Shown here in pieces: positions 4,869 to 62,577 of a stretch of 64,000 nucleotides of DNA. Both the position numbers and the translations under genes were made by a program. The stretch covers positions 1-64,000 of the forward strand of contig JAJPKM010000016.1 of NCBI GenBank assembly GCA_021323735.1. The letters are read 5' to 3'. Under the pieces are notes generated by a model. It worked only from the letters and a program-made list of their open reading frames with translations. It was not told the origin of the DNA and made no database searches. Every line of letters begins with the position of its first letter. Position 1 is the stretch's first letter. Source of the stretch: Gammaproteobacteria bacterium (lineage in GTDB: Bacteria > Pseudomonadota > Gammaproteobacteria > Steroidobacterales > Steroidobacteraceae).

Positions 4869-7067
4869 CTAATGAAAAACCGCTCCGAGAGTCATGTAGT
4901 TCGGGCTCTGCGGACCGCCCTCCTGGGGACTGAAAGTTGCCGTATGGGCGCCGGACGATGAAACCGATGAATATTCGGCCCGTGCGGCAGGTTTGCCGCC
5001 TTTCGTGAAATCCCAGAGCGCGCCGAGGTCAGTGAAGGTGCTGTCGGGCAACGGAGCCGTGGGTGCCGTGGCATCTATGTCGTCGAAGGTCACGGCAATG
5101 AGGATTCCACTCGAATTGGTATTCGTTACCGTGGCCGCTACGGTATTCGTCCCCGGCGGAATGCTGGATTGAAACACCAGTGCGTGGCCGTCGAGCGGAT
5201 TGGCCGAAACACCAGTTATTTCAAAGACTACCACGCCCACCCAATCCTCGAACGTCGGGGTCGCCGGCGCCATATTGATCGTGTAGGTCCCGGCCTGAAC
5301 GTTCGCCGCATACCAGTGCCCCACTGACTGGGTACCCTGAACGCCGAGATTGAACGTGGTTCTATCGTCGTAACGGTCGAGCTGAGTATAGGTGTTGGTC
5401 CCATCCGTGACAGCCATTGTGGGGTAGCTGCTCGCAAAATTCGGCCAGGTACTCACCACATAGATCGTACTTCCGGCTTGAACGTTATTGAGCGTTACAT
5501 TCCATAAATTGCTGTCCGTGCCTGGATAGGCCGTGTATTGAGCGAACTGTCTCACGGATGCTCCCGCACTTGCGGCCTTGATCGTGAAAGAAAGCGCACC
5601 GGAAGTTCCCCCTCCCGGCGCAGGACTGACCACCGTCACATTGGCCGTCCCGGCTGTCGTAAGGTCAGAGGCCGGCACCAAGGCAGTCAGCTGCGAGGCG
5701 CTGACATAGTTGGTCGCCAGCGCCGCTCCGTTCCAATTCACGACAGATGCAGGAACAAAGCTGCTGCCATTGACTGTCAGTGTCAACGCGGTACTACCCG
5801 CGGCTGCGTTAGTCGGCGACAGTGTCGCGATTACAGGTATCGGATTCGACGCCACAATGGTGAAAGCGAGCGCATTGGAGGCGCCACCCCCCGGCGCAGG
5901 ATTGACCACCGTCACGTTGGCCGTCCCGGCTGCCGTAAGGTCGGACGCCGGCGCCAAGGCGGTCAGCTGTGAGGCGCTGACATAAGTGGTCGCCAGCGCC
6001 GCCCCGTTCCAATTCACGGCAGATGCAGCGACAAAGCTGCTGCCATTGACTGTAAGAGTAAACGCGGTGCTACCCGCGGCTGCATTCGTTGGCGACAGTG
6101 TCGCGACTGCAGGTACCGGATTGGTCGCAATAATTGTAAAGGTGAGCGCGCTGGAGACACCACCTCCCGGCGCAGGATTGACCACCGTCACGCTGGCCGA
6201 GCCAGGCGTCGTAACGTCAGAGGCGGGCACCAATGCAGTCAGCTGCGAGGCGCTGACGTAGTTCGTAGTCAGCGCCGCCCCGTTCCAATTCACGGCGGAT
6301 GCTGGAACAAAGCCGCTGCCATTCACGGTAAGCGTAAACGCGGGGCTGCCCGCGGCCACACTCGCGGGTGAGAGTGTCGCGATTGCAGGTACCGGATTAG
6401 TCGCAATAATTGTGAACGTGAATGCACTCGAGGCGCCGCCTCCGGGCGCAGGATTGACCACCGTCACATTGGCGGTGCCAGCCGTCGTAATGTCAGAGGC
6501 CGGTACCAGCGCGGTCAGCTGCGAGGCGCTGACGTAGTTCGTAGTCAGCGCCGCTCCGTCCCAACTCACAGTGGATGCCGGAACAAAGTCGCTGCCATTC
6601 ACGGTAAGCGTAAACGCAGGGCTGCCGGAAGCAATGTTTGACGGCGACAATGCGGCAATTGCCGGTACCGGATTCGTCGCAACAATGGTGAAGGCGAGCG
6701 CACTGGAGGCGCCGCCCCCCGGCGCTGGATTGACCACCGTCACATTGGCCGTCCCAGCCGCCGTGAGGTCAGAGGCCGGCACCAGCGCGGTCAGCTGCGA
6801 GGCACTGACATAGCTGGTCGCCAATGCTTCGCCGTTCCATTGGATCGTCGAAGCCGTTACAAAGTCGCTCCCCGTGGCCGTGAGCGTAAAAGCCGGACTA
6901 CCCGAGGCCACATTCGTCGGCGACAGCGCGGTAATGGCGGGTGCCGGGTTTGGCGGCACGGGGTTTGGAGGCGCCGATGGGGAGGCGCCTCCTCCACAAG
7001 CGCACAAGAACATCAGTGCCAGCAAGCTCGAGGCGGAAAAGCGCAACGAAGTGGATATTAAAGACAC
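4869..7067 (-). CDS. surface lipoprotein with five tandem IPT/TIG repeats
   Basis: A 732 aa predicted outer-membrane lipoprotein. The N-terminal hydrophobic segment ends in the lipobox L-C-A-C (Cys24), followed by a Gly/Ser/Pro linker. Five nearly identical 92-residue repeats (about residues 42-500) follow. Each has the IPT/TIG immunoglobulin-like pattern: [15 protein letters not shown], then a VNGSxFVxAS segment, then [10 protein letters not shown] and [10 protein letters not shown]. The last 230 residues form a different all-beta domain that begins [15 protein letters not shown] do not recognise it. The start is a GTG with a poor ribosome site. The arrangement is that of adhesins and surface carbohydrate-binding proteins. 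It lies between the hydrolase and the epimerase, all on the minus strand, but with gaps of 143 and 194 bases, so it probably has its own promoter. Confidence 0.75.
5567..6944 (-). repeat. five in-frame 276-bp tandem repeats encoding IPT/TIG domains
   Basis: Marker strings such as GGATTGACCACCGTCAC recur near 5899, 6175, 6451 and 6727, an exact 276-base period. The unit length is divisible by three, so copy-number change by recombination would alter protein length without breaking the frame. The copies differ from each other at scattered positions, so the array is not brand new. Confidence 0.85.
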
Positions 7068-12016: not shown

Positions 12017-14956
12017 ATGTTGAAGCGAGACCACATGAACAATTTGATTCGTCGGCACGCAGCACTCGTCGTTATGGCCAAGGTGTTTGCAGTTAGCATC
12101 CTCATGACCGGCGCCCTTGCAGGCTGCGGCGGTAGCTCCGCCGCGGTCACGCAGAACACAGGAGCATTCACGGCACAAACCACTACGCCGCCCACTGCGC
12201 CGCCCACCACGCCGCCCACCACGCCGCCTACTGCGCCGCCCACGGCGCCGCCCACTGCGCCGCCCACGGCGCCGCCCACTGCGCCGCCCACGGCACCTCC
12301 TGCGACGAGGCCTGTTGCGCCAACAATCTCCGGGACACCCCCCACCACCGTCGTGGTTGGCAATTTGTACAACTTCACTCCGACCGTCTCGAACCCCAGC
12401 GGCAAACCGCTCGCTTTTAACATTCAGAGCGCCCCGCGCTGGGCCACCTTCAATACCAGCACCGGACAGCTCAGTGGAACGCCAAGCAGCGCCAATGTGG
12501 GTACGTACCCGAACATTGTGATCTCGGCGACGTTGACGAGCGGCAACACTGCCGCCGCGCAGCTTCCTGCCTTTACCGTGTCAGCTGTGGCGGCGCCTAC
12601 CGCAGCCTTTACCGTTACCTATAATGCCAACGGCTCCACGAGCGGTACGGCGCCGACAGACACCAAGAGTTACGCCACGGGCGCGACGGTCACCGTCCTC
12701 GGCAACACCGGAAACTTGGTACGCACCGGCTACACGTTCTCCAGTTGGAACACCACCGCCAATGGCAGCGGCACGGCTTATGGAGCCGGCAGCACGTTGG
12801 CCTTGGGTTCCGCAAACGTGACCTTCTACGCACAGTGGACGGCGAATGCGCCGCCACCGAGCGCTCCGCCGGCGAACGATCCAACCACCGGGGTCCTGCC
12901 TTCCTATAACGACGCCTTTGCCAACTGGAAAAATGCGGGACTTGCGAGCGTGGGCGGCATTCCGAGCCGGACGACGGTTTGTGCGACGGTCAATCCGCTC
13001 GGCGGCGGCCAGGACGATTTCACTAACATCCAGAACGCGATCAACAGTTGTGCAGCCGGCAAGGTCGTACAACTGGGCGCGGGCGCATTCACTGTTCATC
13101 TGGCCGATCTACCCATACATATTGCGACGGGAATTACGTTGCGCGGGTCGGGCGACTGCGGCGGCTCGAGCTCGCCCTACTGCCAGACTTCCATCAGTGT
13201 GTCTGATGGCGCTCTTGCGTACACGGGCGGGATGTGCGGCACCAGCACGTCCAACAAAGTTGCCTGCCCGAACGGCGGCCCGGCCGTGATTTTAATGGCT
13301 CCCGTCGCCCCCGATTACAATTACAGTTGGGCCAAGTGCGGAAATATCGGTGCCAGAGTTGGCACGGGATGCGGAGCCATTTCGCTGGCCGCCGATGCTG
13401 CGCAGGGTCAGACGACCATCCAGCTCACGAGCACGAGCGGTTTGTCGGTCGGTCAGTGGGTGCTGATCGATGAGGCGTCGGGCGCCGGCTGGGTCGTTGA
13501 TCCCTTGAATGCCACCACAGGATACGGCAGCGTGTGGGCCGCTGCGGACTGGCTCAATCCCTCCGGTAGCCCTGCGACCGGCCGGGTCATGTGGTCGAAA
13601 TCCCTGAATCGCGGCGGCTGGGATTTTGGCACTGCCCTCCCCTCTCAAGCTAACTCGGTAGGCTGCTGGCATTCCTATTGCGACCGACCGACCGCTGAAT
13701 TGCACATGATAGCTGCGATTGGCGCGGGTGCGTGCCCGGGAACCGGATGCACCGTGACGTTTGACGATCCGCTAACCATCGCGTTCCGGCAAAGCGGCAA
13801 TCACAACGCCCAGATTTACGGCGCCCTCTATGGGAATCAGTCAGGCGGGGGCTCGCCTATTTCGCTGCTGCAAAATGCCGGCGTAGAGAACATTTCGGTT
13901 CTACGCGGCGTCAATGGGGGCATGGAAATGCAACTCTGCGCCTACTGCTGGATCAAGAACACCGAGGTCGGCAACTGGTATGGCGGCGGAATAAGCATCG
14001 GGTATTCGGTTCGCAGCGAGCTCAACAACGTGTATGTCCATCATTCCTGGAACTCCGTCAACAATGGCGGCGAATATCCGATCTCGCTGGACAATGCCTC
14101 CACCGAGGTTTTGATCACGAACAGCATCACCAACTTCGGCGGGAAGGGAATGGTCGCTAGAGCGGGAGGTGCAGGTTCAGTTGTCTCCTATAGTTATGTC
14201 GATGACAGTATGTACGACGCAGAATCAGGGATAGGCGACTACTGGGTCGATATGGGCTTGAATGCGAGCCACTATTCGGGACCGCATCATGTCCTTTTCG
14301 AGGGAAACTGGGCCGACAATTTGGACAACGACAATACCCACGGCAACTCAACGTACATCACCTTTTTCCGGAACCAAGGCACAGGATTGCGCACGGCATT
14401 TACCGATCCTTCAATTGGCAAGACGGTGAACGATGCTGCAGGCGCCGCTTTTGCATGCGGGACGTCGGGACCCGGTGGATGCGCGGCAAACTCACCGGGG
14501 CCTTTGCGAGCGGCCGGGCCAATGGCCTATAACTACTGGTTCGCGTTCGTCGGCAACACACTGGGGTTGGCAGGCCAGACGACCGCGGCGAATGGCTGGA
14601 CGTATCAGGGAGACTTTTCTTCCCATCGCATATTCATGTCGGGTTGGAACGCCGGTCCCGGCGGGGTAGACCCGTTTCTAAACGGAGTCATTGGATCCTA
14701 TATCTTCCGCAATGGGAACTATGACTATCTCAACGCATCGATCGTGGACTGGACTTCCACATCACCGCACACGCTGCCGAACTCGTTCTATCTGTCTTCC
14801 ACGCCCTCCTTCTTCAGCTCGGGTGCCGCTTGTACCTATTCGTGGCCGTGGGTAACGCCGACCGGTTCAGCGCCGATCCAGGCGAACAGTTGCGGCGGCT
14901 CGGGTCTGCCTGCCAAGGCACGCTATGAAGCAGGTACGCCCTTGAAGCAGCCTTGA
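12017..14956 (+). CDS. lipoprotein with Pro/Thr linker, Ig-like modules and a right-handed beta-helix domain
   Basis: A 979 aa surface protein. The signal peptide ends in the lipobox LAGC (Cys37). A Pro/Thr-rich linker (about 55-95) follows. Next comes a putative-Ig (He_PIG type) module (about 98-190, with PLAFNIQSAPRWATFN and TGQLSGTPS). Then a Listeria-Bacteroides/InlB-B type repeat (about 195-280, with VTYNANGSTSGTAP and GYTFSSWN). The large C-terminal part (about 295-979) is Gly/Asn/Ser-rich, with repeated short strands such as VENISVLRGVNGGMEM, suggesting a pectate-lyase-like parallel beta-helix. It is homologous to 16187-18268: both share VVQLGAG and VLIDEASGAGW-type stretches. A GAGGA precedes the ATG. 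A role as polysaccharide lyase/depolymerase or binding protein is inferred; catalytic residues are not identified. Confidence 0.75.
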   Translation: MLKRDHMNNLIRRHAALVVMAKVFAVSILMTGALAGCGGSSAAVTQNTGAFTAQTTTPPTAPPTTPPTTPPTAPPTAPPTAPPTAPPTAPPTAPPATRPVAPTISGTPPTTVVVGNLYNFTPTVSNPSGKPLAFNIQSAPRWATFNTSTGQLSGTPSSANVGTYPNIVISATLTSGNTAAAQLPAFTVSAVAAPTAAFTVTYNANGSTSGTAPTDTKSYATGATVTVLGNTGNLVRTGYTFSSWNTTANGSGTAYGAGSTLALGSANVTFYAQWTANAPPPSAPPANDPTTGVLPSYNDAFANWKNAGLASVGGIPSRTTVCATVNPLGGGQDDFTNIQNAINSCAAGKVVQLGAGAFTVHLADLPIHIATGITLRGSGDCGGSSSPYCQTSISVSDGALAYTGGMCGTSTSNKVACPNGGPAVILMAPVAPDYNYSWAKCGNIGARVGTGCGAISLAADAAQGQTTIQLTSTSGLSVGQWVLIDEASGAGWVVDPLNATTGYGSVWAAADWLNPSGSPATGRVMWSKSLNRGGWDFGTALPSQANSVGCWHSYCDRPTAELHMIAAIGAGACPGTGCTVTFDDPLTIAFRQSGNHNAQIYGALYGNQSGGGSPISLLQNAGVENISVLRGVNGGMEMQLCAYCWIKNTEVGNWYGGGISIGYSVRSELNNVYVHHSWNSVNNGGEYPISLDNASTEVLITNSITNFGGKGMVARAGGAGSVVSYSYVDDSMYDAESGIGDYWVDMGLNASHYSGPHHVLFEGNWADNLDNDNTHGNSTYITFFRNQGTGLRTAFTDPSIGKTVNDAAGAAFACGTSGPGGCAANSPGPLRAAGPMAYNYWFAFVGNTLGLAGQTTAANGWTYQGDFSSHRIFMSGWNAGPGGVDPFLNGVIGSYIFRNGNYDYLNASIVDWTSTSPHTLPNSFYLSSTPSFFSSGAACTYSWPWVTPTGSAPIQANSCGGSGLPAKARYEAGTPLKQP
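12185..12300 (+). repeat. 12-bp tandem repeat coding for a Thr-Ala/Thr-Pro-Pro linker
   Basis: Nine consecutive 12-base units of the form RCGCCGCCYACN, plus a partial tenth, encode T-A/T-P-P repeats just after the lipoprotein cysteine. The unit is a multiple of three, so slippage would only change spacer length between the membrane anchor and the folded domains. Confidence 0.85.
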
Positions 14957-53736: not shown

Positions 53737-54076
53737 GGTAAGAGTTCCTTTGGAGCTGACATTAGCTCGGTGGGAAGTCTGCGCCATCCCCGGCAAATTG
53801 CATCTCGCCGCGTCTACAGAATGGACGCCGCGCGAAAGGCTAGCGGTTCGGACTTGCGCGCGCGAACACAAGGAATCAAAGCGATCTTCTTCATTGGCAT
53901 GACTCGATGCCCATTGGATGTTGTTGCCATGCAACAGAGCGACGGCCCGGGCCTGCCTTTGAAAGGTTGGGGATTTGGTTAGATAATGGGTATATAACCA
54001 TAATCCACCCATTATCCATCCAATGTGGTTAGATAATGGGTATATAACCATCCTGCCCATCGCGGAGCATTTGAAA
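53737..54076. other. divergent intergenic region between peroxiredoxin and the Fic gene
   Basis: 340 bases without a supported gene. The half next to the peroxiredoxin has GC-rich, featureless sequence. The half next to the Fic gene is AT-rich and carries the repeated operator-like elements at 53976-54051. Confidence 0.55.
53976..54051 (+). promoter_or_regulatory. pair of 26-bp direct repeats with internal symmetry upstream of the Fic gene
   Basis: Two identical 26-base copies (53976-54001 and 54026-54051), 50 bases apart start to start, each begin TGGTTAGATAATGGG and end TATATAACCAT. Each copy has GGTTA near one end and TAACC near the other. The spacer contains CCCATTATCC, the inverse of GATAATGGG. 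The second copy ends 25 bases before the Fic start codon. This is the layout of an autoregulatory operator, with the Fic protein's own N-terminal winged helix as the obvious candidate to bind. Confidence 0.7.
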
Positions 54077-55447
54077 ATGACCATTCCGCTTCTTGCCGAA
54101 ACAATCCTCCAATACCTGGCAACCCAAAGAGCACGGGGAAGACTGAGCATCGGAGCACGAGAGCTGGCAGAACGCCTTCACATACCGCGGACATCTCTCA
54201 ATCGGCATCTGATCAAAATGACCGAGGAAGGAGTACTGACCCGTACAGGGGTTGGGCCTTCAACTGCTTACCAAATCACGGCGACCGCTGAGTCGGCACG
54301 CACTATTGCAAACGAAACCGTGGCGGACCCCAAAATGCCGGCAGATCTTACTTGGGGGGCCTCGGCCCGGACCCTGCTGGCGAACCTGCGCGCACCCCTT
54401 GGACTTCGAACTCCGGTGTCCTATCAGCGGCAGTTTGTCGACGGATACCGCCCTAACGAATCCTCGCTCCTCCCGGCAAGTCTCGCCGTTGCGTTATACG
54501 AGCAAGGCCGACTACAGGGACAACAGCCCGCAGGAACCTATGCACGTCGGGTGCTCGAGCAGCTCCTCATCGACCTAGCATGGTATTCGTCCCGCTTGGA
54601 AGGCAATGGCAAGAGTCTACTCGACACGCGCGAGCTATTTTTAAGGGGACGTTCGCCCGGTGACGACATCGATGCCACCATGCTCTTGAACCATAAAGAT
54701 GCCATCGAATTCATTGTCGATGCCGTACCCACCTACGGCATTACCCTGCCAGTGGTTTGCAACGTGCAGAGCACTTTGATGAGTGGATTGCTGGCAAACC
54801 CAGCCGCACTTGGCGCGATTCGTAGCACGATCGTGAATATTTCCGATACGGTTTATGTTCCTTCACAGGTGCCCGCTCTGCTCGACGAGATGCTCCGTGC
54901 AATTGTCGAGAAGGCCCGTGCCATTAGAAATCCCGTTGAATGCGCGTTCTTTCTGTGGGTGAACATCGCCTATTTACAACCGTTTGAAGATGGGAATAAG
55001 CGTACTAGCCGGCTGGCCTCGAATCTTCCGCTCCTGTTATCGAACTGTGCGCCTCTGTCCTTTCTGGACGTCGAACCTTCGGACTACGCGATGGCGATGC
55101 TCGGTGTGTACGAACAACAAGACGTATCGTTGGCAGCTGATTTATTTGATTGGACCTACCGGCGCTCGATTGCAAAATATCGGGCTATTCTGGCATCCAT
55201 GGGGGCGCAGGATCCTTTGCGCGCCAAGTATCGTGAGTACCTCAGTGATGCCATCCGGCAGATCGTTGTCACAGGATCTACCCTCCCCGTAGCGGTCGAG
55301 GCGCTGGCAATTCCAAATGTCGATCGGCCGGCGTTCATCGAGCTTTTACGTATCGAACTCGCAAACCTCGAGCCTTACAATTGCGCACGTTACCGACTGA
55401 CCATCAATAAGACCGAAGAGTGGATTGCCCATGGCAGGTTGGCATAG
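54077..55447 (+). CDS. Fic family protein with N-terminal winged-helix domain
   Basis: A 456 aa protein. Residues 5-75 form a winged helix-turn-helix (IGARELAERLHIPRTSLNRH, then LIKMTEEGVLTRTG). A Fic domain follows from about 130. An inhibitory-helix motif S-x-x-x-E-G is at residues 171-176 (SSRLEGN). The active-site loop reads QPFEDGNKRTSR (301-312), so the usual catalytic histidine is glutamine. Other loop residues, including Asn307 and Arg312, are kept. Fic proteins transfer AMP or other phosphate-containing groups to target hydroxyls. With Gln in place of His, activity may be absent or altered. The ATG at 54077 has GGAG nine bases upstream; an earlier ATG falls inside the repeat. Confidence 0.87.
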   Translation: MTIPLLAETILQYLATQRARGRLSIGARELAERLHIPRTSLNRHLIKMTEEGVLTRTGVGPSTAYQITATAESARTIANETVADPKMPADLTWGASARTLLANLRAPLGLRTPVSYQRQFVDGYRPNESSLLPASLAVALYEQGRLQGQQPAGTYARRVLEQLLIDLAWYSSRLEGNGKSLLDTRELFLRGRSPGDDIDATMLLNHKDAIEFIVDAVPTYGITLPVVCNVQSTLMSGLLANPAALGAIRSTIVNISDTVYVPSQVPALLDEMLRAIVEKARAIRNPVECAFFLWVNIAYLQPFEDGNKRTSRLASNLPLLLSNCAPLSFLDVEPSDYAMAMLGVYEQQDVSLAADLFDWTYRRSIAKYRAILASMGAQDPLRAKYREYLSDAIRQIVVTGSTLPVAVEALAIPNVDRPAFIELLRIELANLEPYNCARYRLTINKTEEWIAHGRLA

Positions 55448-55489
55448 CAAGGCATGCCCGAGCCCCGGCGTCGCGCAGGGACTCGATGG

Positions 55490-56608
55490 CTACTTCAATA
55501 CCGCCTTGATCTCGCTGACGACACGCTCCACGTCCTCATCGCGCATGGCCGGGAACAAGGGCAAGGTCACAGTCTCGCGTCCGACGCGCGCCGCCACCGG
55601 TGTATCTTCCTCGCGATAGCCCGCCTCCCGATAAAACTTGAGACTGGGAATACTCGGATAGTGCACGCCGATGCCGATGCCGCGCTCCGCCATGGCCTTC
55701 TGAAATCCCACCCGCGTCATGCCGCGCGCGGCAAAGTCGATCAATATCTGAAACATGTGCCAGCTATGTCCGGAATCGCCGCGTGCCGGCATTACCGCGC
55801 CGGTGAAGCCCTGGAATGCGTCGAAGTAGCGGCCCGCCAGATCCAAGCGGCGGGCATTGAAGCCGTCCAAGCGCCGCAGTTGGTCAATGCCGATTTGCGC
55901 CGCCACATCGGTCAGATTGCTCTTGGCGCCGGGGAACATCACATCCACTTCGCCGGCGGCGTTGCGCTTGATGCCGTGAAAGCGGTATTGCTCCAGGAGC
56001 TCCGCCGCCAGCGCATCTCCGGTGCTGATGGCACCGCCCTCGATGGTGGTCATGTTCTTGTTCGGATGGAAACTGAACACCACCAGGTCCCCGAAGCTGC
56101 CGATCGGTTTGCCGTGATAAGTCGAGCCGATGGCATGCGCCGCATCTTCCACCACACGCAATCCATGCTCCGCCGCCAGACCGTAGAGTCCATCCATATC
56201 CACCGGCAGCCCTGCGAAATGCACCGGCATGATGGCGCGGGTCTTCGCTGTGATCGCCGCGGGTACGCGATCCAAATCGATGTTGCGGGTATGCAGATCG
56301 ATGTCCACGAAGACAGGCTTGGCGCGCAGCCGTGCGATGACATTGGCGCTCGCGGCGAAACTCATGGCCGGCACGATGACTTCATCGCCCGCGCCGACGC
56401 CGGCAACCTCGAGAGCCATCTCCAGGCCGGCCGTGGCCGAAGTCATGACCCGCAGGTGCCGGTTGCCGCCGAGATAGGCGGCCAACGCCGCCTCGAAGGC
56501 CGCGACTTTGGGACCGCTGGCCAGTTGCCCGGAGCGAAATACGTCCGCGACCGCGGCGATGCTCTCCTCATCGATCGAGGGCCGGGTAAAGGGCAGAAAG
56601 GGCTTCAT
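55490..56608 (-). CDS. arnB: ArnB-like PLP aminotransferase (UDP-Ara4O to UDP-Ara4N)
   Basis: A 372 aa DegT/DnrJ/EryC1-family aminotransferase. FLPFTRPSIDEESIAAVADV opens as in ArnB. The PLP lysine is in FSFHPNKNMTTIEGG, with VVEDAAHAIGSTYHGKPIG before it. It would transaminate the 4-keto sugar made by the ArnA-type dehydrogenase. It is the last gene of the operon and overlaps the SMR gene by four bases. In E. coli arnB is first, so the order differs. DegT enzymes acting on other 4-keto sugars look alike; operon context supports this assignment. Confidence 0.9.
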   Translation of the reverse strand: MKPFLPFTRPSIDEESIAAVADVFRSGQLASGPKVAAFEAALAAYLGGNRHLRVMTSATAGLEMALEVAGVGAGDEVIVPAMSFAASANVIARLRAKPVFVDIDLHTRNIDLDRVPAAITAKTRAIMPVHFAGLPVDMDGLYGLAAEHGLRVVEDAAHAIGSTYHGKPIGSFGDLVVFSFHPNKNMTTIEGGAISTGDALAAELLEQYRFHGIKRNAAGEVDVMFPGAKSNLTDVAAQIGIDQLRRLDGFNARRLDLAGRYFDAFQGFTGAVMPARGDSGHSWHMFQILIDFAARGMTRVGFQKAMAERGIGIGVHYPSIPSLKFYREAGYREEDTPVAARVGRETVTLPLFPAMRDEDVERVVSEIKAVLK

Positions 56609-56985
56609 GCGGAACTCCGCGACACCAGCGCAACGCCGGCACAGATGAGCGCAATCCCCAGCATCTTAGGGATAGTGAGTGTCTCTCCCAGCCAGGCCAC
56701 CGAAACGGCCGCGACCACCACATAACCCAAGGACAGCATGGGATATGCGGTGCTGACCGGTGCCTTGGTCAGGGCGGCGACCCATACGCAGACGCTGGCC
56801 GAGTAGCACAGCATGCCGGCCCAAAACGGCAGGCTCTTGAACAGAATGACCACGCTGCTGCTCAAGGTATCAGCATTGAACACCGTGAAACGAGCCAAGG
56901 GTTTGGTGGCCGCCTTGAGCAACAGTTGCGCCCCGGCATTTAACCCCACGCCGGTCAAAATCAACAACCACGTCATGAAAGTCAT
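56605..56985 (-). CDS. SMR-type membrane protein, probable Ara4N-lipid flippase subunit (ArnE/F-like)
   Basis: A 126 aa four-helix protein of the EamA/SMR clan: TWLLILTGVGLNAGAQLLLK, FWAGMLCYSASVCVWVAAL and YPMLSLGYVVVAAVSVAWLG are typical. In E. coli the ArnE/ArnF pair moves undecaprenyl-phosphate-Ara4N across the inner membrane. Here only one such gene is found, so it may act as a homodimer. It overlaps both neighbours by four bases (arnT upstream, arnB downstream). Confidence 0.85.
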   Translation of the reverse strand: MTFMTWLLILTGVGLNAGAQLLLKAATKPLARFTVFNADTLSSSVVILFKSLPFWAGMLCYSASVCVWVAALTKAPVSTAYPMLSLGYVVVAAVSVAWLGETLTIPKMLGIALICAGVALVSRSSA

Positions 56986-58628
56986 TGCCGCGCTACCATC
57001 ACATGGGCCACATTTTCACCGACCTTTCGCATGGGCACGCCGCGCTCCTCGAAATCATTGAAAGTTCTCTTATCCATCACCGCGTAAGCGCGAGAAAGCG
57101 CCCCCCACACCTTGAGAAACTCCTCGACGTCCGCGATCGCGCCCCCGGGGGAGCGGTGCAACCCATAGTCAAGCTCGCCACGATACCCGACCAATGTGAC
57201 TGTGCGGCGCAAATAAAAGGGCAGCGTTTGGTCATAGGTACGCACGGTGAACAGCGGCGCATCGCGGCTCTCGACGGGCAGCGCCCGCGCCAGATCCAGC
57301 CCTGAGTAGATCGGCGCCAGCAGGGCGGCGCTGCGGATCAGGACCAAGACCGCCAGGCACCAGCCCACCCCAAGAAAGATCCCGGCCCTCGTGACATCTC
57401 GTGCCCCCTGCGCCCACACGAACGCACCGGACACGATCAGCAGCGCGGCGACTTCGCGCAACGGCTTCGCGAGTAACAGAAAGTAGGGCTGCGCCGGCGA
57501 TGCCGGCACCAGGTTCGGCGCATAGAAGCTCGCCGCGCCCAGCACCGCACCCACCAGGACCGTGAGGATGGCCGTGACCAGGAAATCCCGCTTCAAAGTG
57601 CCAATCGGCCGCACCGCGATCAAGACCGCCAGCGCCGGCATGGCCGGCAGGATGTAGGGCATGAGCTTCGAATCGGAGAAGGAGAAGAACAGGCAGACGA
57701 AGACCACCCAAATCCACAAGAAAAACTCAGGCTGGAACACCTGGCCCGGGGTGCGTCGCCGCCAGCCGCCGGCCAGCACCCTAAGGGCCGGCACCGTCCA
57801 TGGGACGGAGCCGATCAAGAACACCATCCCGAAGAACCACCAAGATTCCTGGCGATCCGCGACCGGCGTCAAATAGCGCTTGAAGTGCTCGTGGACGAAG
57901 AAGAACTGCAGAAAATCATCTCGCCTTAAAGAAGCCAGCCAGTGCCAGGGCACCGTCAAGCATAAGAACAGCGGCAAACCCCAAGCGAGCTTCAGCCGGC
58001 GCCAAGGTGTGAAATCACGGGCACACAGACTGTAGATGAGCAGCACTGCCACGGGTATCGCGGTCGCCACGAGGCCCTTGGTGAGCACCCCTAAGGCCGC
58101 GCCGATCCACGCCATCAGCATCCATCGCGACCCGCGTTCAGCGTCGGTCTGCGCCAGCACAAATCCCGTCATGCTCGCCGTCATGTAGAACGTCAGGCTC
58201 ATGTCCAGCGTCACCACCTGACTTAAAGCCACCATCATGACCATGCCCGACGCCACCGCGGCGGCACGCCAGCCCGACTCTCGCCCGCCCAGTCGAGTCC
58301 CGAGCAATCCCACCAAGGCCACGGTCCCGAGCGCCGTCAGCGCGCTATAAAGCCGTGCCGCGAGCTCGCTCAAGCCGAACAAACGGTACATCGTGGCGGT
58401 CGCCCAGTACTGCAGGGGCGGCTTTTCGATGTAGTCCAAGCCGTTCAGATGCGGGATCACCCAATCACCGCCGCCCAGCATTTCGCGCGGAATCTCGGCG
58501 TACCGACCCTCGTCGGGATTGAACAGCGGACGGCTCGCCAGGGTGGCGAACCACACCGCCGCCAGCAGTGCCGCAAGACCCAGATACAGCGTGCCTGGAC
58601 GCAGCTTCGATTCCAGAGCCTGACTCAC
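56982..58628 (-). CDS. arnT: ArnT-like lipid A aminoarabinose transferase (GT83)
   Basis: A 548 aa inner-membrane GT-C glycosyltransferase with about 12 helices. The catalytic first loop is in SRPLFNPDEGRYAEIPREML, followed by VIPHLNGLDYIEKPPLQYWA, both strongly ArnT-like. It moves Ara4N from undecaprenyl phosphate to lipid A phosphates in the periplasm, which lowers binding of polymyxin-type cationic peptides. It overlaps arnD and the SMR gene by four bases each. A related family member acting on another lipid-linked sugar cannot be fully excluded, but the operon argues for ArnT. Confidence 0.92.
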   Translation of the reverse strand: MSQALESKLRPGTLYLGLAALLAAVWFATLASRPLFNPDEGRYAEIPREMLGGGDWVIPHLNGLDYIEKPPLQYWATATMYRLFGLSELAARLYSALTALGTVALVGLLGTRLGGRESGWRAAAVASGMVMMVALSQVVTLDMSLTFYMTASMTGFVLAQTDAERGSRWMLMAWIGAALGVLTKGLVATAIPVAVLLIYSLCARDFTPWRRLKLAWGLPLFLCLTVPWHWLASLRRDDFLQFFFVHEHFKRYLTPVADRQESWWFFGMVFLIGSVPWTVPALRVLAGGWRRRTPGQVFQPEFFLWIWVVFVCLFFSFSDSKLMPYILPAMPALAVLIAVRPIGTLKRDFLVTAILTVLVGAVLGAASFYAPNLVPASPAQPYFLLLAKPLREVAALLIVSGAFVWAQGARDVTRAGIFLGVGWCLAVLVLIRSAALLAPIYSGLDLARALPVESRDAPLFTVRTYDQTLPFYLRRTVTLVGYRGELDYGLHRSPGGAIADVEEFLKVWGALSRAYAVMDKRTFNDFEERGVPMRKVGENVAHVMVARQ

Positions 58629-59563
58629 GCCGCCTCAGGCTGGGCGGGCTGCATGGCCAACAGCCCCGAGCGTCCCGGCACCTCGCCCATGACCACGGTC
58701 TGATCGGGAAGCGGCCGCGCAAGGCTCAGTTCGTGAATCTTCGCCATGCGCGTGATGTGGGCACCGGCCGCCTGCCATTTTTGGAGCAGCGACTCGAAGG
58801 CGGGAAGCAGCAGCATGCCTTCCAATTCGGCATGCAGGGTGAACACGTGCAACGGCGCGTCGCTGTGAGCGGTCGCGTCGCCGACGGAGAGTCGGAATAC
58901 CGCATCGGCAATATTCGATTCGTCGATCCCGTCGCGGCCCAGCAATTCATCGAAGGTGGGCAGCGTGGTCGGCAATTGCGGACAGGTGCTGCGACCCGCT
59001 GCCAGGCGCGGCCAGAAAGGTGTCCTTCCGCGGGTGTCGCTGGCGTACATGAGGCCGAACTCACGCTCCAGCTCCAACGCATGCGCGTTGATTTGCCAGC
59101 CGGCTGCGGCATGCGACTGCGGAAAAAAGCCGAACACCTGCCTGAAAGCGTTCATGCCGCGCTCGAACTCCATCCGGGTCCACGCTTCCGAGGCGCCGGC
59201 AACCTGGTCCTGCCAGCGCACATGATCATAGGTGTGCAGCCCCACTTCGAAGCCGCCATCGTCCACATCGCGCATGAACGCGCCTGCCTCGCGGCCGATA
59301 TCCGGGCCCGGCAGCAGCACCCCGTAGAGCAAGGTTTTCAAGCCATAGTGCTTGAGCACCGAGGTGCGCGCGACCTTCTGTGCGAAGCCTTTGCGAAACA
59401 CCCGCCGCATCGCGCGTCCCGTATGATCGGGGCCCACGGAAAAATAAAACGAGGCATCGACCTTGAGCTTCTTGAACAGCGCCGCGAGCCGCGGCACGCC
59501 CTCGCGGGTTCCCCGCAAGGTATCCACATCGACCTTGAGGCCGATGTGCGTGCGCTCAAGCAT
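58625..59563 (-). CDS. arnD: ArnD-like deformylase (polysaccharide-deacetylase fold)
   Basis: About 312 aa. The first motif IGLKVDVDTLRGTREGVPRL corresponds to the metal-binding DVDTxRGT of ArnD. FYFSVGPDHTGRAMRRVFRK and VGLHTYDHVRWQD (metal histidines) follow, and SDTRGRTPFWP is also typical. It removes the formyl group from undecaprenyl-phosphate-Ara4FN before transport. The frame opens 50 codons earlier, but that part belongs to the preceding gene; the ATG at 59563 overlaps the decarboxylase stop by eight bases. Product length equals that of known ArnD proteins. Confidence 0.93.
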   Translation of the reverse strand: MLERTHIGLKVDVDTLRGTREGVPRLAALFKKLKVDASFYFSVGPDHTGRAMRRVFRKGFAQKVARTSVLKHYGLKTLLYGVLLPGPDIGREAGAFMRDVDDGGFEVGLHTYDHVRWQDQVAGASEAWTRMEFERGMNAFRQVFGFFPQSHAAAGWQINAHALELEREFGLMYASDTRGRTPFWPRLAAGRSTCPQLPTTLPTFDELLGRDGIDESNIADAVFRLSVGDATAHSDAPLHVFTLHAELEGMLLLPAFESLLQKWQAAGAHITRMAKIHELSLARPLPDQTVVMGEVPGRSGLLAMQPAQPEAA

Positions 59564-60605
59564 CGCGCGACAACAACGCCGAGGCAGAGGGCAAGGCGTG
59601 AGCGTAGGAATCGAAGATGGCCTTGAGCGCGGCGCGCATGTCGGTCTTCGGAGTCCAGTGTAGTTCCGCGGTGGTGTTCTTGATCGAGGGCAGGCGCGCC
59701 GGAATGTCCGCATATCCCTTGCCGTAGTAATCCAGCGCCGACACGTCGATCAACCGGGTATTGCGTGCGGTGGGCGCGTATTCGGGGCGCGACAAGGCGA
59801 TTTCCAGCATCATCTGCGCCAGCTGGCGGATGGAGTACGAATTATGCGGGTTGCCGATGTTGTAGATCTTGCCGTCCGCCACACCATTCGGATTGTCGAT
59901 GATGGTGGTCAGGCATTCGACCGCATCGTCGATGTAGGTGAAGGCACGAGTTTGCGTGCCGCCGTCGACCAGTTTGATCGGCTCGCCGCGCACGATGTGG
60001 CCTAAGAATTGCGTCAACACCCGCGAGCTGCCTTCCTTCGGGTCATCCATGCTGTCCAAGCCCGACCCGATCCAGTTGAAGGGCCGAAACAGGGTGAATT
60101 GCAGCCCCTGTTGGCCATAGGCCCAGATGATGCGATCCAAGAGCTGCTTCACGCAGGAGTAGATCCAGCGCTGCTTGTGGATGGGACCCAGCACCAACTC
60201 AGAGGTCTCCGGATCGAATTCACTGTCGCGGCAGGCACCGTACACTTCCGAAGTCGAGGGGAACACCACCCGCTTCTTGTACTTCACGCAGTGCCTGATG
60301 ATGGGCAGGTTGGCCTCGAAGTCCAATTCGAACACCCGTAAGGGCTCGCGCACATAGGTCGCCGGCGTCGCGATGGCCACCAGCGGCAGTATCACGTCGC
60401 ATTTGCGCACGTGATACTCGATCCACTCCAAGTTGATGGTGATATCGCCTTCCACGAAATGAAAGCGCGGATTGGCCAGCATGGCGCCGACCCGTTCCGA
60501 CTGCAGGTCCATGCCGTAAATATGCCAATCCGTATGTGCCAGGATGTACTTGCTCAGATGATGGCCGATGAACCCATTGACCCCGAGAATCAGAACGTTT
60601 TTCAA
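59556..60605 (-). CDS. UDP-glucuronate C4-oxidising decarboxylase (ArnA C-terminal half as separate gene)
   Basis: A 349 aa extended SDR. NVLILGVNGFIGHHLSKYIL is the NAD site. HFVEGDITINLEWIEYHVRK, CDVILPLVAIATPATYV and VVFPSTSEVYGACRDSEF closely follow the dehydrogenase half of E. coli ArnA; the Ser-Glu of the last motif are the ArnA catalytic pair. RWIYSCVKQLLDRIIWAYG holds the tyrosine/lysine-type dyad region. It converts UDP-glucuronate to UDP-4-keto-pentose. In E. coli this is fused to the formyltransferase; here the two are separate genes 38 bases apart. It overlaps arnD by eight bases. Confidence 0.94.
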   Translation of the reverse strand: MKNVLILGVNGFIGHHLSKYILAHTDWHIYGMDLQSERVGAMLANPRFHFVEGDITINLEWIEYHVRKCDVILPLVAIATPATYVREPLRVFELDFEANLPIIRHCVKYKKRVVFPSTSEVYGACRDSEFDPETSELVLGPIHKQRWIYSCVKQLLDRIIWAYGQQGLQFTLFRPFNWIGSGLDSMDDPKEGSSRVLTQFLGHIVRGEPIKLVDGGTQTRAFTYIDDAVECLTTIIDNPNGVADGKIYNIGNPHNSYSIRQLAQMMLEIALSRPEYAPTARNTRLIDVSALDYYGKGYADIPARLPSIKNTTAELHWTPKTDMRAALKAIFDSYAHALPSASALLSRDA

Positions 60606-60643
60606 AATAAACCCCTCGTCAATGAGCCCGCGACAATGAGCAC

Positions 60644-61570
60644 TTAGTCAAGCGCCAGCGGTTGGTGTGCCAGCGCCGGCGGCACGGTATTGTGGGCCAA
60701 AGACTCGCCATTGGCGGTCAATTGCAAAATCTTAAGGCGCCGCCCGTCGATGCAGTCGGCGTACCAGGATCCTTCCGATGCGTACAGACACGGCGCCTGT
60801 GCGGGATATTTTGCCGGCTGCCCATCGAGGCGAGTCGCGAGAATCGCCATCCGGCAGCCGTTGACGTCGGTGAAGGCACCGGGGAACGGCGGCGCCACCG
60901 CACGCACCAGGTCATGAATGGCGCGGGCGCCGCGGCGCCAGTCGATGCGCCCGTCTTCCGGCCGCCGACGGCCGAAATATGAGCCTGCCGCCAGATCCAG
61001 GGGCCGCGAACGCGCCGTGCCCGCAATCAGCGCCGGCAGGCTGCGGCGCAGCACCGTTTCTGCGGCCGCGGCAACCTTGATGGATACCTCGAGCGCCGTA
61101 TCGTTTTCCAATATCGGCACCGCTTCTTGATCGACCAGCGCCCCGGCATCCGGCTTTTCCACCATGTAATGCAAGCTGGCGCCGGTCATCGACTCACCGT
61201 GGATGATGGCCCAATGCACCGGCGCACGCCCACGATACTTGGGCAACAATGATCCATGCATGTTCAACGCCCCTTGGCGCGGCAGAGCGAGCCAGGCCTT
61301 GTCCAGCATGTAACGATAGTAGAACGAGAACACGAAATCGGGCCGGGCCGCAGCAACGCGCGTGAGCCAATTAGGCGCGTTGGGCGACTCCGGGGTAACG
61401 GCGTTCAACCCGTGCGCCGCCGCCAATTGCGCCACGCTGCCGAACCACTGGTTTTCAGTCGGATCGTCCGCATGCGTGAACAACAGCGGAATGTCGATGC
61501 CCTGCGCCAGCAACGCGCGCACACAGCGAACGCCGACCTCGCTGTATGCGAATACCACGGCAGTGGTCAC
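60644..61570 (-). CDS. formyltransferase (ArnA N-terminal half as separate gene)
   Basis: A 308 aa 10-formyl-tetrahydrofolate-dependent enzyme. The catalytic Asn and His are in GALNMHGSLLPKYRGRAPVH and the Asp is in MVEKPDAGALVDQEA, matching the N-H-D triad of ArnA's formyltransferase half. The C-terminal OB-like part contains PPFPGAFTDVNGCRM. It formylates UDP-Ara4N. It starts with an ATGA overlap on arnC and is followed by the decarboxylase gene. Length matches a single-domain formyltransferase; no dehydrogenase part is attached. Confidence 0.93.
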   Translation of the reverse strand: MTTAVVFAYSEVGVRCVRALLAQGIDIPLLFTHADDPTENQWFGSVAQLAAAHGLNAVTPESPNAPNWLTRVAAARPDFVFSFYYRYMLDKAWLALPRQGALNMHGSLLPKYRGRAPVHWAIIHGESMTGASLHYMVEKPDAGALVDQEAVPILENDTALEVSIKVAAAAETVLRRSLPALIAGTARSRPLDLAAGSYFGRRRPEDGRIDWRRGARAIHDLVRAVAPPFPGAFTDVNGCRMAILATRLDGQPAKYPAQAPCLYASEGSWYADCIDGRRLKILQLTANGESLAHNTVPPALAHQPLALD

Positions 61571-62577
61571 GGAACCGACGAGTCCGTGATCCGCCGCGAC
61601 AAGAATCCCGGCCTGGCGTGGTTCGGATCGGTGTCCTGCTCCAGTACCGCCTCGACGATGTAGCGTGGCCGCTCGCGGACCTGCGCGTAGATACGCCCCA
61701 CATATTCACCCAGCAATCCGATGCCGAACAGGGCTACTCCGATCAGCAGGAACACCACGCTGAACAGCGTGAACAACCCTTCGGCTTCGGATCCCACCCA
61801 GAGGCGCCGCACCACCAGGGCGACGAAGGCAAACGCCGAGAACAACGCGACCACCATGCCGATCATCGAAAACAACTGCAGCGGTACCACCGAGAAACCC
61901 GTGATCAGGTCGAAATTCAAACGGATCAAGCTGTACATCGAATATTTCGACCGCCCCGCATGGCGTTCTTCGTGAGCAATCGGAACTTCTATCGGGTTCA
62001 TCGCATAGATCGAGGCCAGCGCGGGGATGAAGGTGTTCACCTCGCGCGTCTGATTGAGCGCGGTCACCACGGAGCGTGCGTAGCCGCGCATAATGCAGCC
62101 CTGATCGGTGATGCGTACCGGCGTGATCCATTCGCGGATCTTGTTGATGGCCTTGGAAAACGTACGCCGCCACAGCGAATCCTGACGCTGCTGGCGGATG
62201 GTGCCCACGTAGTCGAAACCTTCGTCCAGCTTGCCGACCAACTTGCCGATTTCCTCCGGTGGGTTCTGCAGGTCCGCATCCAGTGTCACCACATACTCGC
62301 CTCGCGCGTAGGCGAGCCCCGCCATCACCGCCGAGTGCTGGCCGAAATTGGCATGGAACAGCACCACCCGCGTTTCGTTCGGACGTTCCTGGAACTGCTG
62401 GCGCAGCAGCGCCACCGAACGGTCCCTGCTGCCGTCGTTCACGAACACGATCTCGTAGCGAATCTTCAGCGCATCGAGCGAAGGATAGAGTCGCGAGAAC
62501 AACGTCGGCAGTACCGCCTCTTCGTTGTACACGGGGATGACGACACTGAGTTTAGGTAGCGACTTGAGAATGGACAT
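61567..62577 (-). CDS. arnC: ArnC-like undecaprenyl-phosphate Ara4FN transferase
   Basis: A 336 aa GT2 enzyme with two C-terminal membrane helices (about 235-310). LSVVIPVYNEEAVLPTLFSR, VFVNDGSRDRSVALLRQQF and VVTLDADLQNPPEEIGKLVG are shared with ArnC. IREWITPVRITDQGCIMRGY is another ArnC-type stretch. It moves formylated aminoarabinose from UDP to undecaprenyl phosphate on the cytoplasmic side. It lies between pmm (six-base gap) and the formyltransferase (ATGA overlap). The closely related GtrB enzymes are the alternative, but the operon decides. Confidence 0.93.
   Translation of the reverse strand: MSILKSLPKLSVVIPVYNEEAVLPTLFSRLYPSLDALKIRYEIVFVNDGSRDRSVALLRQQFQERPNETRVVLFHANFGQHSAVMAGLAYARGEYVVTLDADLQNPPEEIGKLVGKLDEGFDYVGTIRQQRQDSLWRRTFSKAINKIREWITPVRITDQGCIMRGYARSVVTALNQTREVNTFIPALASIYAMNPIEVPIAHEERHAGRSKYSMYSLIRLNFDLITGFSVVPLQLFSMIGMVVALFSAFAFVALVVRRLWVGSEAEGLFTLFSVVFLLIGVALFGIGLLGEYVGRIYAQVRERPRYIVEAVLEQDTDPNHARPGFLSRRITDSSVP

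What the first reader, a model, noticed from the sequence alone, without database searches (positions are those of the whole stretch)
53976..55447. Fic protein with glutamine in place of the catalytic histidine, and a repeated operator at its promoter
The loop QPFEDGNKRTSR keeps the phosphate-binding part but lacks the base histidine, and an S-x-x-x-E-G inhibitory motif is present. The protein starts with a winged helix, and two perfect 26-base repeats with inverted spacer symmetry lie just ahead of the gene. It could be a transcription regulator that uses the Fic fold as a nucleotide sensor, autoregulated through these repeats.
Basis: partly seen in the sequence, partly recalled or inferred. 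Interest (0 to 1): 0.6.

Follow-up and report, generated by a model that had tools for sequence, protein, structure and literature searches.

The report
Self-repressing Fic gene without catalytic histidine
A probably mobile, stand-alone bacterial gene joins a DNA-binding head to a Fic enzyme fold whose catalytic histidine is replaced by glutamine, and it very probably controls itself through a row of matching DNA sites at its own start; relatives in several phyla keep this layout with their own versions of the sites, which gives a long-unexplained branch of a large enzyme family a testable role.

Summary
The gene (best start 54077) encodes an N-terminal winged helix, a Fic fold with QPFEDGNKRTSR and an intact SSRLEG motif. 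The 26-base repeats belong to an array of seven 11-bp units (53976-54047) over the predicted promoter; the tandem pair occurs nowhere else in the held genome assembly. The glutamine is no lesion: it stands in 123 of 124 aligned family rows, one clade in the tree made. Of 113 family loci, 86 have an upstream array that 0 of 200 shuffles match, against 2 of 82 neighbouring promoters. Arrays hold 3-10 units phased at about 10.1 bp. Units differ between relatives and track the recognition helix: residues 39, 42 and 43 rank 1st, 2nd and 4th of 422 columns. Autoregulation through the winged helix is thus well supported. No neighbour gene is conserved; five of five congeneric loci examined lack the gene at this site: a mobile one-gene module. 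The nucleotide-sensor idea remains untested. Arrays also precede 13 of 25 long Fic genes that keep the histidine, so they do not follow from its loss. Nearest characterised analogue: CccR. The His-to-Gln clade was published in 2015; my searches found no report of its arrays.

The parts
53959..53987 (+). predicted sigma-70 promoter TTGAAA-17-GATAAT; the -10 hexamer (53982-53987) overlaps units 1-2 of the array
   Evidence: 10 of 12 matches; 1 found, shuffles mean 0.3; consensus match only
53976..53997 (+). units 1-2, tandem TGGTTAGATAA + TGGGTATATAA (in the first 26-base repeat)
53990..54022 (-). units 3-5 on the minus strand: TGGATGGATAA (54022-54012), TGGGTGGATTA (54011-54001), TGGTTATATAC (54000-53990, overlapping unit 2 as a palindrome)
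   Evidence: tandem pairs with 1 and 2 mismatches
54026..54047 (+). units 6-7, tandem TGGTTAGATAA + TGGGTATATAA (second 26-base repeat)
54064..54067 (+). GGAG, likely ribosome-binding site, 9 nt before ATG 54077
   Evidence: sequence
54077..55447 (+). wHTH-Fic(Q) gene, 456 aa
54083..54310 (+). N-terminal winged helix (residues 3-78)
   Evidence: AF2 model pLDDT 92.4; 7wze_A Z 11.7, rmsd 1.9, 72 aligned
54188..54226 (+). recognition helix (residues 38-50), with residues T39, N42, R43
54359..55204 (+). Fic domain (residues 95-376)
   Evidence: 4u0u_A (eukaryotic Fic protein, FICD) Z 23.6, rmsd 2.9, 234 aligned
54587..54604 (+). inhibitory motif SSRLEG (S171-G176)
   Evidence: E in 124 of 124 rows
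54977..55012 (+). Fic loop QPFEDGNKRTSR (Q301-R312), Gln at the catalytic His position
   Evidence: Q in 123 of 124 rows
55190..55444 (+). C-terminal all-helical region (residues 372-456), role unknown
   Evidence: AF2 pLDDT 87.2; no clear fold match

Best explanation
A one-gene, self-repressing module that appears to be mobile. (1) The N-terminal winged helix binds the row of 11-bp units that lies over and just after the gene's own promoter; units sit on one face of the DNA helix in tandem and inverted pairs, so several protein dimers bind together and block transcription (inferred from sequence; strong comparative evidence for recognition, none for the sign of regulation). (2) The Fic domain keeps its phosphate-binding Asn/Arg residues, metal Asp and inhibitory Glu but has Gln for the general base and Lys for the second Gly of the loop, fixed once at the base of the family; it most likely binds a nucleotide, or a protein carrying one, without ordinary AMP transfer (inferred). 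(3) Ligand binding changes the dimer and so the grip on the array, releasing expression under some stress (inferred by analogy with HTH-Fic proteins in which DNA binding, oligomer state and the nucleotide site are coupled). (4) What the released protein does beyond regulating itself is unknown; its lone, scattered, mobile placement suggests a defence- or addiction-like role (weakly supported).
For: Arrays: 99 of 113 family loci (window included) beat the best of 20 shuffles; with 200 shuffles 86 of 113 are never matched and 95 of 113 by at most 2, versus 2 and 4 of 82 neighbouring promoters (7 of 82 with 20 shuffles). Unit matches with up to 1 mismatch: 248 at the fic promoter, 13 elsewhere in 622,836 bases, no clusters. 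Phasing: same-strand spacings peak at 11, 20, 30-31, 40-41, 51-52, 60-61, best period 10.1, R 0.73, n=461; shuffled sets reach at most 0.41. Recognition: operator similarity versus helix identity r=0.54, partial given Fic identity 0.20, 0 of 2000 permutations; in the subfamily of 32, 0.30, 0 of 5000; residues 39, 42, 43 rank 1, 2, 4 of 422; matched-band test positive in 89 of 99 loci. Own genome: no other tandem pair. Gln: 123 of 124, one clade, support 99. No conserved neighbour in 93 loci; 5 of 5 congeneric loci without the gene.
Against: No binding, repression or ligand was measured. Arrays also precede 13 of 25 long His-type Fic genes, so they do not speak for a changed Fic function. Overall Fic identity predicts operator similarity better than helix identity does (partial 0.36 versus 0.20), so shared descent accounts for much of the match; column 324, outside the helix, ranks third, helix residues 41 and 45 rank 292 and 409, and the helix as a whole beats other columns only at p=0.013. 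13 of 113 loci have no array at 10 of 200 shuffles, among them the close relative L033; L032 falls below the best of 100 shuffles. A regulator with no target but itself needs another output, which nothing here shows.
Confidence: 0.6

Rival explanations
1. A single-gene Fic toxin or defence protein with changed chemistry: the Gln/Lys loop still catalyses a transfer or hydrolysis on a cell or phage target, and the winged helix and array merely keep its level low, as in CccR or SoFic-type genes.
For: The catalytic-site residues other than His are nearly invariant, unlike a decaying site; His-type Fic genes carry the same kind of array; PADLOC's SoFic model matches the Fic core at 1.3e-13; homologues lie on plasmids and in prophages; CccR is both AMPylase and autorepressor (PMC9755527, abstract and section 10 part 1). 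PMC4454073 section 6 also argues that the Gln clade may not be dead.
Against: No general base at the usual place; in FICD, His-to-Ala abolishes deAMPylation and the His is called an essential general base for AMPylation (PMC8373988, passages). No target known. The SoFic match covers only profile positions 49-216 of 361.
Confidence: 0.27
2. A true pseudoenzyme that reads AMPylated proteins: like the His-to-Ala form of FICD it traps, but does not release, AMP-modified partners made by other Fic enzymes of the cell, and thereby frees its own promoter.
For: FICD His363Ala forms a long-lived complex with AMPylated BiP (PMC8373988, passages); the inhibitory Glu, loop Asn and Arg are kept. In 59 genomes of the order, 7 of 7 with a Gln-type gene also hold at least one other Fic gene, versus 27 of 52 without (searches compared).
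Confidence: 0.08
3. The arrays are not operators of this protein: they serve another regulator, recombination, or are chance low-complexity DNA.
For: Protein-DNA contact is only inferred; a tyrosine/serine recombinase or integrase lies within 5 kb in 6 of 11 plasmid regions read (not in 47, 48, 49, 79, 82).
Against: 0 of 1000 shuffles match the window array; control promoters 2 of 82; unit sequence follows residues 39, 42, 43 of this protein's own recognition helix; arrays lie at a fixed place before the start codon.
Confidence: 0.05

Closest known systems
CccR of Yersinia pseudotuberculosis (PMC9755527; abstract, passages, section 10 part 1 seen)
   Same: One protein with a Fic domain and a helix-turn-helix; represses its own promoter by binding 10-bp inverted units near -35/-10; no cognate antitoxin needed for regulation.
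   Different: HTH at the C-terminus; catalytic His present and active on FtsZ; two units 26 bp apart rather than a phased row; secreted effector. PDB 7xux (380 residues) is probably CccR, an inference from length and date; it matches only the Fic core by sequence.
Fic/Doc clade D2 with Qx[FY]x[DE][GV]NKR (PMC4454073, section 6 read)
   Same: Same His-to-Gln loop, bacterial; 45 sequences, function unknown.
   Different: Described there as usually single-domain; here members have an N-terminal winged helix, a C-terminal helical region and an operator array. That the two sets are the same clade is inferred from the motif.
SoFic anti-phage protein (PMC12249575, passages seen)
   Same: Class II Fic protein acting as a single-gene system; ATP binding moves its C-terminal domain, which couples nucleotide site and second domain.
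   Different: Catalytic His present; no N-terminal winged helix; a small downstream antitoxin AS1 reported; our protein matches the SoFic profile only over the Fic core.
CbFic2 (PMC10628234, abstract and passages seen)
   Same: Fic protein with HTH in which DNA binding changes oligomeric state and (de)AMPylation.
   Different: C-terminal HTH, catalytic His present, tested on random DNA, no operator reported in the passages seen.
FICD/HYPE (closest solved Fic domain)
   Same: Fic fold and inhibitory Glu; best match by sequence (2.6e-10) and by fold (Z 23.6).
   Different: Eukaryotic, TPR domain instead of winged helix, catalytic His present, GNGR loop.

Membership tests
Fic/Doc (Fido) superfamily, PF02661 | Fic fold / profile match above the curated cut-off | tested here: met
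   39.8 bits vs cut-off 24; 4u0u_A Z 23.6 over 234 residues
AMPylating Fic enzymes (HxFx[DE]GNGRxxR) | catalytic His | tested here: not met
   Q301 in the window; Q in 123 and R in 1 of 124 rows (window three times in these rows, one row cut inside the loop)
AMPylating Fic enzymes (HxFx[DE]GNGRxxR) | second Gly of GNGR | tested here: not met
   K308; K in 120 of 124 rows by my count of the motif list
AMPylating Fic enzymes (HxFx[DE]GNGRxxR) | AMP transfer to a protein | not testable with these tools
   needs biochemistry
Class II Fic proteins | [ST]xxxE[GN] inhibitory helix N-terminal to the Fic core | tested here: met
   SSRLEG; E 124 of 124, S 124 of 124 (the motif was one of two scan patterns for L032-L111, not for loci)
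Clade D2 of PMC4454073 | Qx[FY]x[DE][GV]NKR loop | tested here: met
   QPFEDGNKR
Clade D2 of PMC4454073 | one clade against His-type Fic | tested here: met
   34 Gln-family rows one side of a branch against 31 His-type rows, SH-aLRT 99 (quick tree, long branches among the His rows, no D2 sequence from the paper in it)
Clade D2 of PMC4454073 | usually single-domain | tested here: not met
   N-terminal winged helix
HTH-Fic autorepressors (CccR type) | binding units in the own promoter | tested here: met
   as sequence only:
HTH-Fic autorepressors (CccR type) | HTH C-terminal to the Fic domain | tested here: not met
   winged helix is N-terminal; C-terminal region all helical without clear match
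HTH-Fic autorepressors (CccR type) | repression shown in cells | not testable with these tools
   needs reporter assay
SoFic defence proteins | match to the PADLOC SoFic profile over its length | tested here: inconclusive
   1.3e-13, but profile positions 49-216 of 361 only
two-gene toxin-antitoxin modules | conserved partner gene | tested here: not met
   no neighbour cluster in more than 6 of 93 loci, at scattered positions; ORFs under 80 aa were not looked at

The most novel reading that the evidence does not exclude
A widespread bacterial clade has turned the Fic enzyme fold into the ligand-sensing half of a transcription factor: His was exchanged for Gln once, AMP transfer was lost, and a nucleotide (or an AMP-modified protein) bound in the pocket controls co-operative assembly of winged-helix dimers along a helically phased array at the gene's own promoter. 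Each lineage evolved its own helix-operator pair, so several such modules can live in one cell without cross-talk.
Probability: 0.33. Interest if true: 0.8.

Novelty: new variant of a known kind. Interest (0 to 1): 0.62.

Why it matters
It ties an orphan, catalytically odd clade of a very large enzyme family to a concrete job, self-regulation, in over a hundred loci from several phyla, and gives the DNA sites with which to test it. Helix and operator pairs across relatives read almost like a table of protein-DNA recognition for one winged-helix family. Arrays at His-type Fic genes as well suggest that self-repression by HTH-Fic proteins, known to me only for CccR, is a general rule for long Fic proteins. 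It makes the question of what a Fic pocket without its histidine binds directly testable, because a promoter reporter can serve as the readout.

Tried and rejected
Rejected: 'decayed catalytic site' (Gln, loop Asn and both Arg conserved across the family); 'array specific to the Gln form' (13 of 25 His-type Fic genes of 340 aa or more have arrays in a 300-bp window with 40 shuffles, 2 of 11 shorter ones; Gln family in the same test 95 of 129; a first pass with 170 bp and 20 shuffles gave 17 of 36 His-type); 'regulon' (no other tandem pair in the own assembly; single 11-bp units were not searched genome-wide); 'toxin-antitoxin pair' (no conserved neighbour).

Led nowhere: C-terminal region folded alone (pLDDT 87.2) had no Foldseek match at E 0.001 or below and best VIA Z 4.2 among 24 chains. 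NCBIfam gave no match above its cut-offs. A literature search for the loop letters found nothing, nor did one for names such as HTH-Fic. Annotated phages hold only Fic-core matches covering under half of the query, 28 records. Co-resident family pairs: seven genomes looked at; in five both arrays beat 20 shuffles and the units differ (G173's share TGGCGC), in G165 the second array is not significant, in G020 one gene has no usable start. Own-genome Fic genes: of 10 regions fetched 8 showed a Fic motif, 3 of these passed the array test, one strongly (L195, six copies), two narrowly.

Dropped rows: one search tested 113 of the 123 family loci (q itself apart) after leaving out loci without an ATG/GTG near the expected start, with open, short or N-holding upstream DNA, or an identical upstream stretch. 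Near-copies (L137-L139) remain. output was cut in the middle; those rows were seen.

Full report
The gene. The reading frame at 54077-55447 encodes 456 residues; the longer frame from ATG 54023 starts inside the second repeat, whereas 54077 follows GGAG by nine bases. Pfam finds an IclR-type helix-turn-helix (1.1e-5) and a Fic domain (8.4e-10). The AlphaFold model made from 67 family members has mean pLDDT 92.4: residues 3-78 form a winged helix (7wze_A, Z 11.7), 95-376 a Fic fold (eukaryotic FICD 4u0u_A, Z 23.6), and 372-456 a helical region without a clear match. A profile of the family finds no solved close relative; FICD, its worm homologue, BT_2513 and a few bacterial Fic proteins match through the Fic core.

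The active site. At the place of the catalytic His stands Gln in 123 of 124 aligned rows and Arg in one (L007). The rows include the window three times and one row cut inside the loop. The inhibitory Glu and Ser are in 124 of 124, the loop Asn in 123, the first Arg in 122, the second Arg in 123, the metal-binding Asp in 119; Lys replaces the second Gly in 120 by my count. In a tree of 34 Gln-family and 31 His-type Fic domains the Gln family is one side of a branch, support 99 (quick search, long branches among the His rows). So the change is old, single on this tree, and kept. It was described in 2015 as clade D2, 45 sequences, 'usually single-domain', function unknown (PMC4454073, section 6 read).

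The array. The two 26-base repeats are parts of a row of seven 11-bp units, consensus TGGnTnnATAA, at 53976-54047: two on the plus strand, three on the minus strand, two on the plus strand. 0 of 1000 dinucleotide shuffles reach its score. The only sigma-70-like promoter found between 53740 and 54120 has its -10 hexamer inside the first units. In the held assembly the tandem pair is found nowhere else at up to 2 mismatches.

Relatives. Record titles and the tree's labels name Pseudomonadota, Bacteroidota, Verrucomicrobiota, Chlamydiota, Myxococcota, Thermodesulfobacteriota, Rhodothermota and a cyanobacterial bin (many are metagenome bins). Of 113 loci whose upstream 170 bp could be tested, 99 beat the best of 20 shuffles. 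With 200 shuffles, 86 are never matched, 95 by at most two and 100 by at most ten; the nearest usable neighbouring promoter in 82 of the same loci gives 2, 4 and 9. Thirteen loci fail at ten of 200, among them L033, 59% identical to the window; L032, 62% identical, is below the best of 100 shuffles, while L214 from the same genus, 63% identical, passes. The 99 arrays have 3 to 10 copies, lying mostly between -110 and -10 of the start codon. Same-strand spacings cluster at 11, 20, 30-31, 40-41, 51-52 and 60-61 bp; the best period is 10.1 bp (R 0.73, 461 spacings; 0.68 for spacings of 26 or more), shuffled sets reaching 0.41 and 0.54 at most with far fewer spacings. The copies therefore face one side of the DNA.

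Recognition. Unit sequences differ between relatives and go with the recognition helix: for example RPTINR with TGACAAGATT, SATVRRHL with TGAGCAGAT, YATVGRLL with TGAGGAGAT, RRTAQR with TGGCGCAGTT, many RRTLQRR with TGGCGCGA or TGTCGC, RRTLQYRL with TTGCGCATAG-like units, and RTSLNRHL in the window with TGGTTAGATAA. Operator similarity correlates with helix identity (r 0.54) and with Fic-domain identity (r 0.60); the partial values are 0.20 and 0.36, so descent explains more than the helix alone, yet none of 2000 permutations reaches the helix value and none of 5000 in the 32-member subfamily (partial 0.30). Of 422 protein columns, residues 39, 42 and 43, one face of the predicted recognition helix (38-50), rank 1st, 2nd and 4th; column 324 is third, and helix positions 41 and 45 rank 292nd and 409th. 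Among partners of middling Fic identity (0.40-0.60) the one with the most similar helix has the more similar operator in 89 of 99 loci (56 of 85 in the narrower band 0.45-0.55). I take this as good evidence that the winged helix reads the array.

Mobility. No neighbour family recurs in more than 6 of 93 loci (largest cluster of doubtful reading frames). In five congeneric genomes the peroxiredoxin gene and the aminotransferase gene that flank the window gene lie side by side without it; homology stops near 53760-53790 (53697 in one) and resumes near 55489-55530 (five loci fetched out of 19 other genomes with a match). Full-length relatives are in 5 of 23 genomes of the genus, window included, 35-63% identical; in G606 and G594 the empty site and the relative lie on different contigs. 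L092, L131 and L132 sit antisense between phage baseplate genes. In 11 plasmid regions read, 6 have an integrase or recombinase within 5 kb.

His-type Fic genes. Of 25 His-type Fic genes of at least 340 aa in the order, 13 have arrays, of 11 shorter ones 2 (300-bp window, 40 shuffles), with period 10.0 (R 0.73); the Gln family in the same coarser test gives 95 of 129. One of the window genome's own His-type genes (L195) has six copies of another unit. This links the finding to CccR, which represses its own promoter through 10-bp inverted units (PMC9755527, section 10 part 1), and shows that arrays are not a mark of the Gln form.

Mechanism. Shown: the parts, their conservation, the phasing, the match of helix and units. 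Inferred: binding, repression, co-operativity, ligand. Coupling of DNA, dimer state and nucleotide site is known for other HTH-Fic proteins: DNA binding shifts CbFic2 between AMPylation and deAMPylation (PMC10628234, abstract and passages), ATP moves the C-terminal domain of SoFic (PMC12249575, passages), and FICD without its His traps AMPylated BiP (PMC8373988, passages). Hence the sensor reading is reasonable, but a changed enzyme kept low by self-repression is a serious rival. Papers on the clade's arrays or winged helix were not found in the searches, which cover open-licence PubMed Central papers only.

Noticed in passing
window 55490-62577, minus strand: An arn-like operon for L-Ara4N modification of lipid A: ArnB-, ArnF-, ArnT-, ArnD- and ArnC-like genes (below the NCBIfam cut-offs) and ArnA split into two genes that pass the cut-offs of single-domain models. 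The Fic gene sits at its downstream end.
   Followed up: partly
window 5593-6926 and 12180-12291: A 276-bp repeat (4.8 copies) and a 12-bp proline-rich coding repeat (9.3 copies).
   Followed up: no
L174, L178-L180, L183, L188, L195: Arrays of other 11-bp units upstream of Fic genes that keep the catalytic His, also phased near 10 bp: self-regulation may be general for long Fic proteins.
   Followed up: partly
L092:3887-5314, L131:4860-6281, L132:4944-6377: Family members antisense between baseplate genes of prophage-like elements, placed like lysogeny-expressed cargo genes.
   Followed up: partly
   Followed up: no
L206 (Undibacterium plasmid) and L152 (Roseibium plasmid): Neighbours include a multiubiquitin/ThiF set and WYL and TIR-domain genes, which suggests accessory defence regions.
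   Followed up: no
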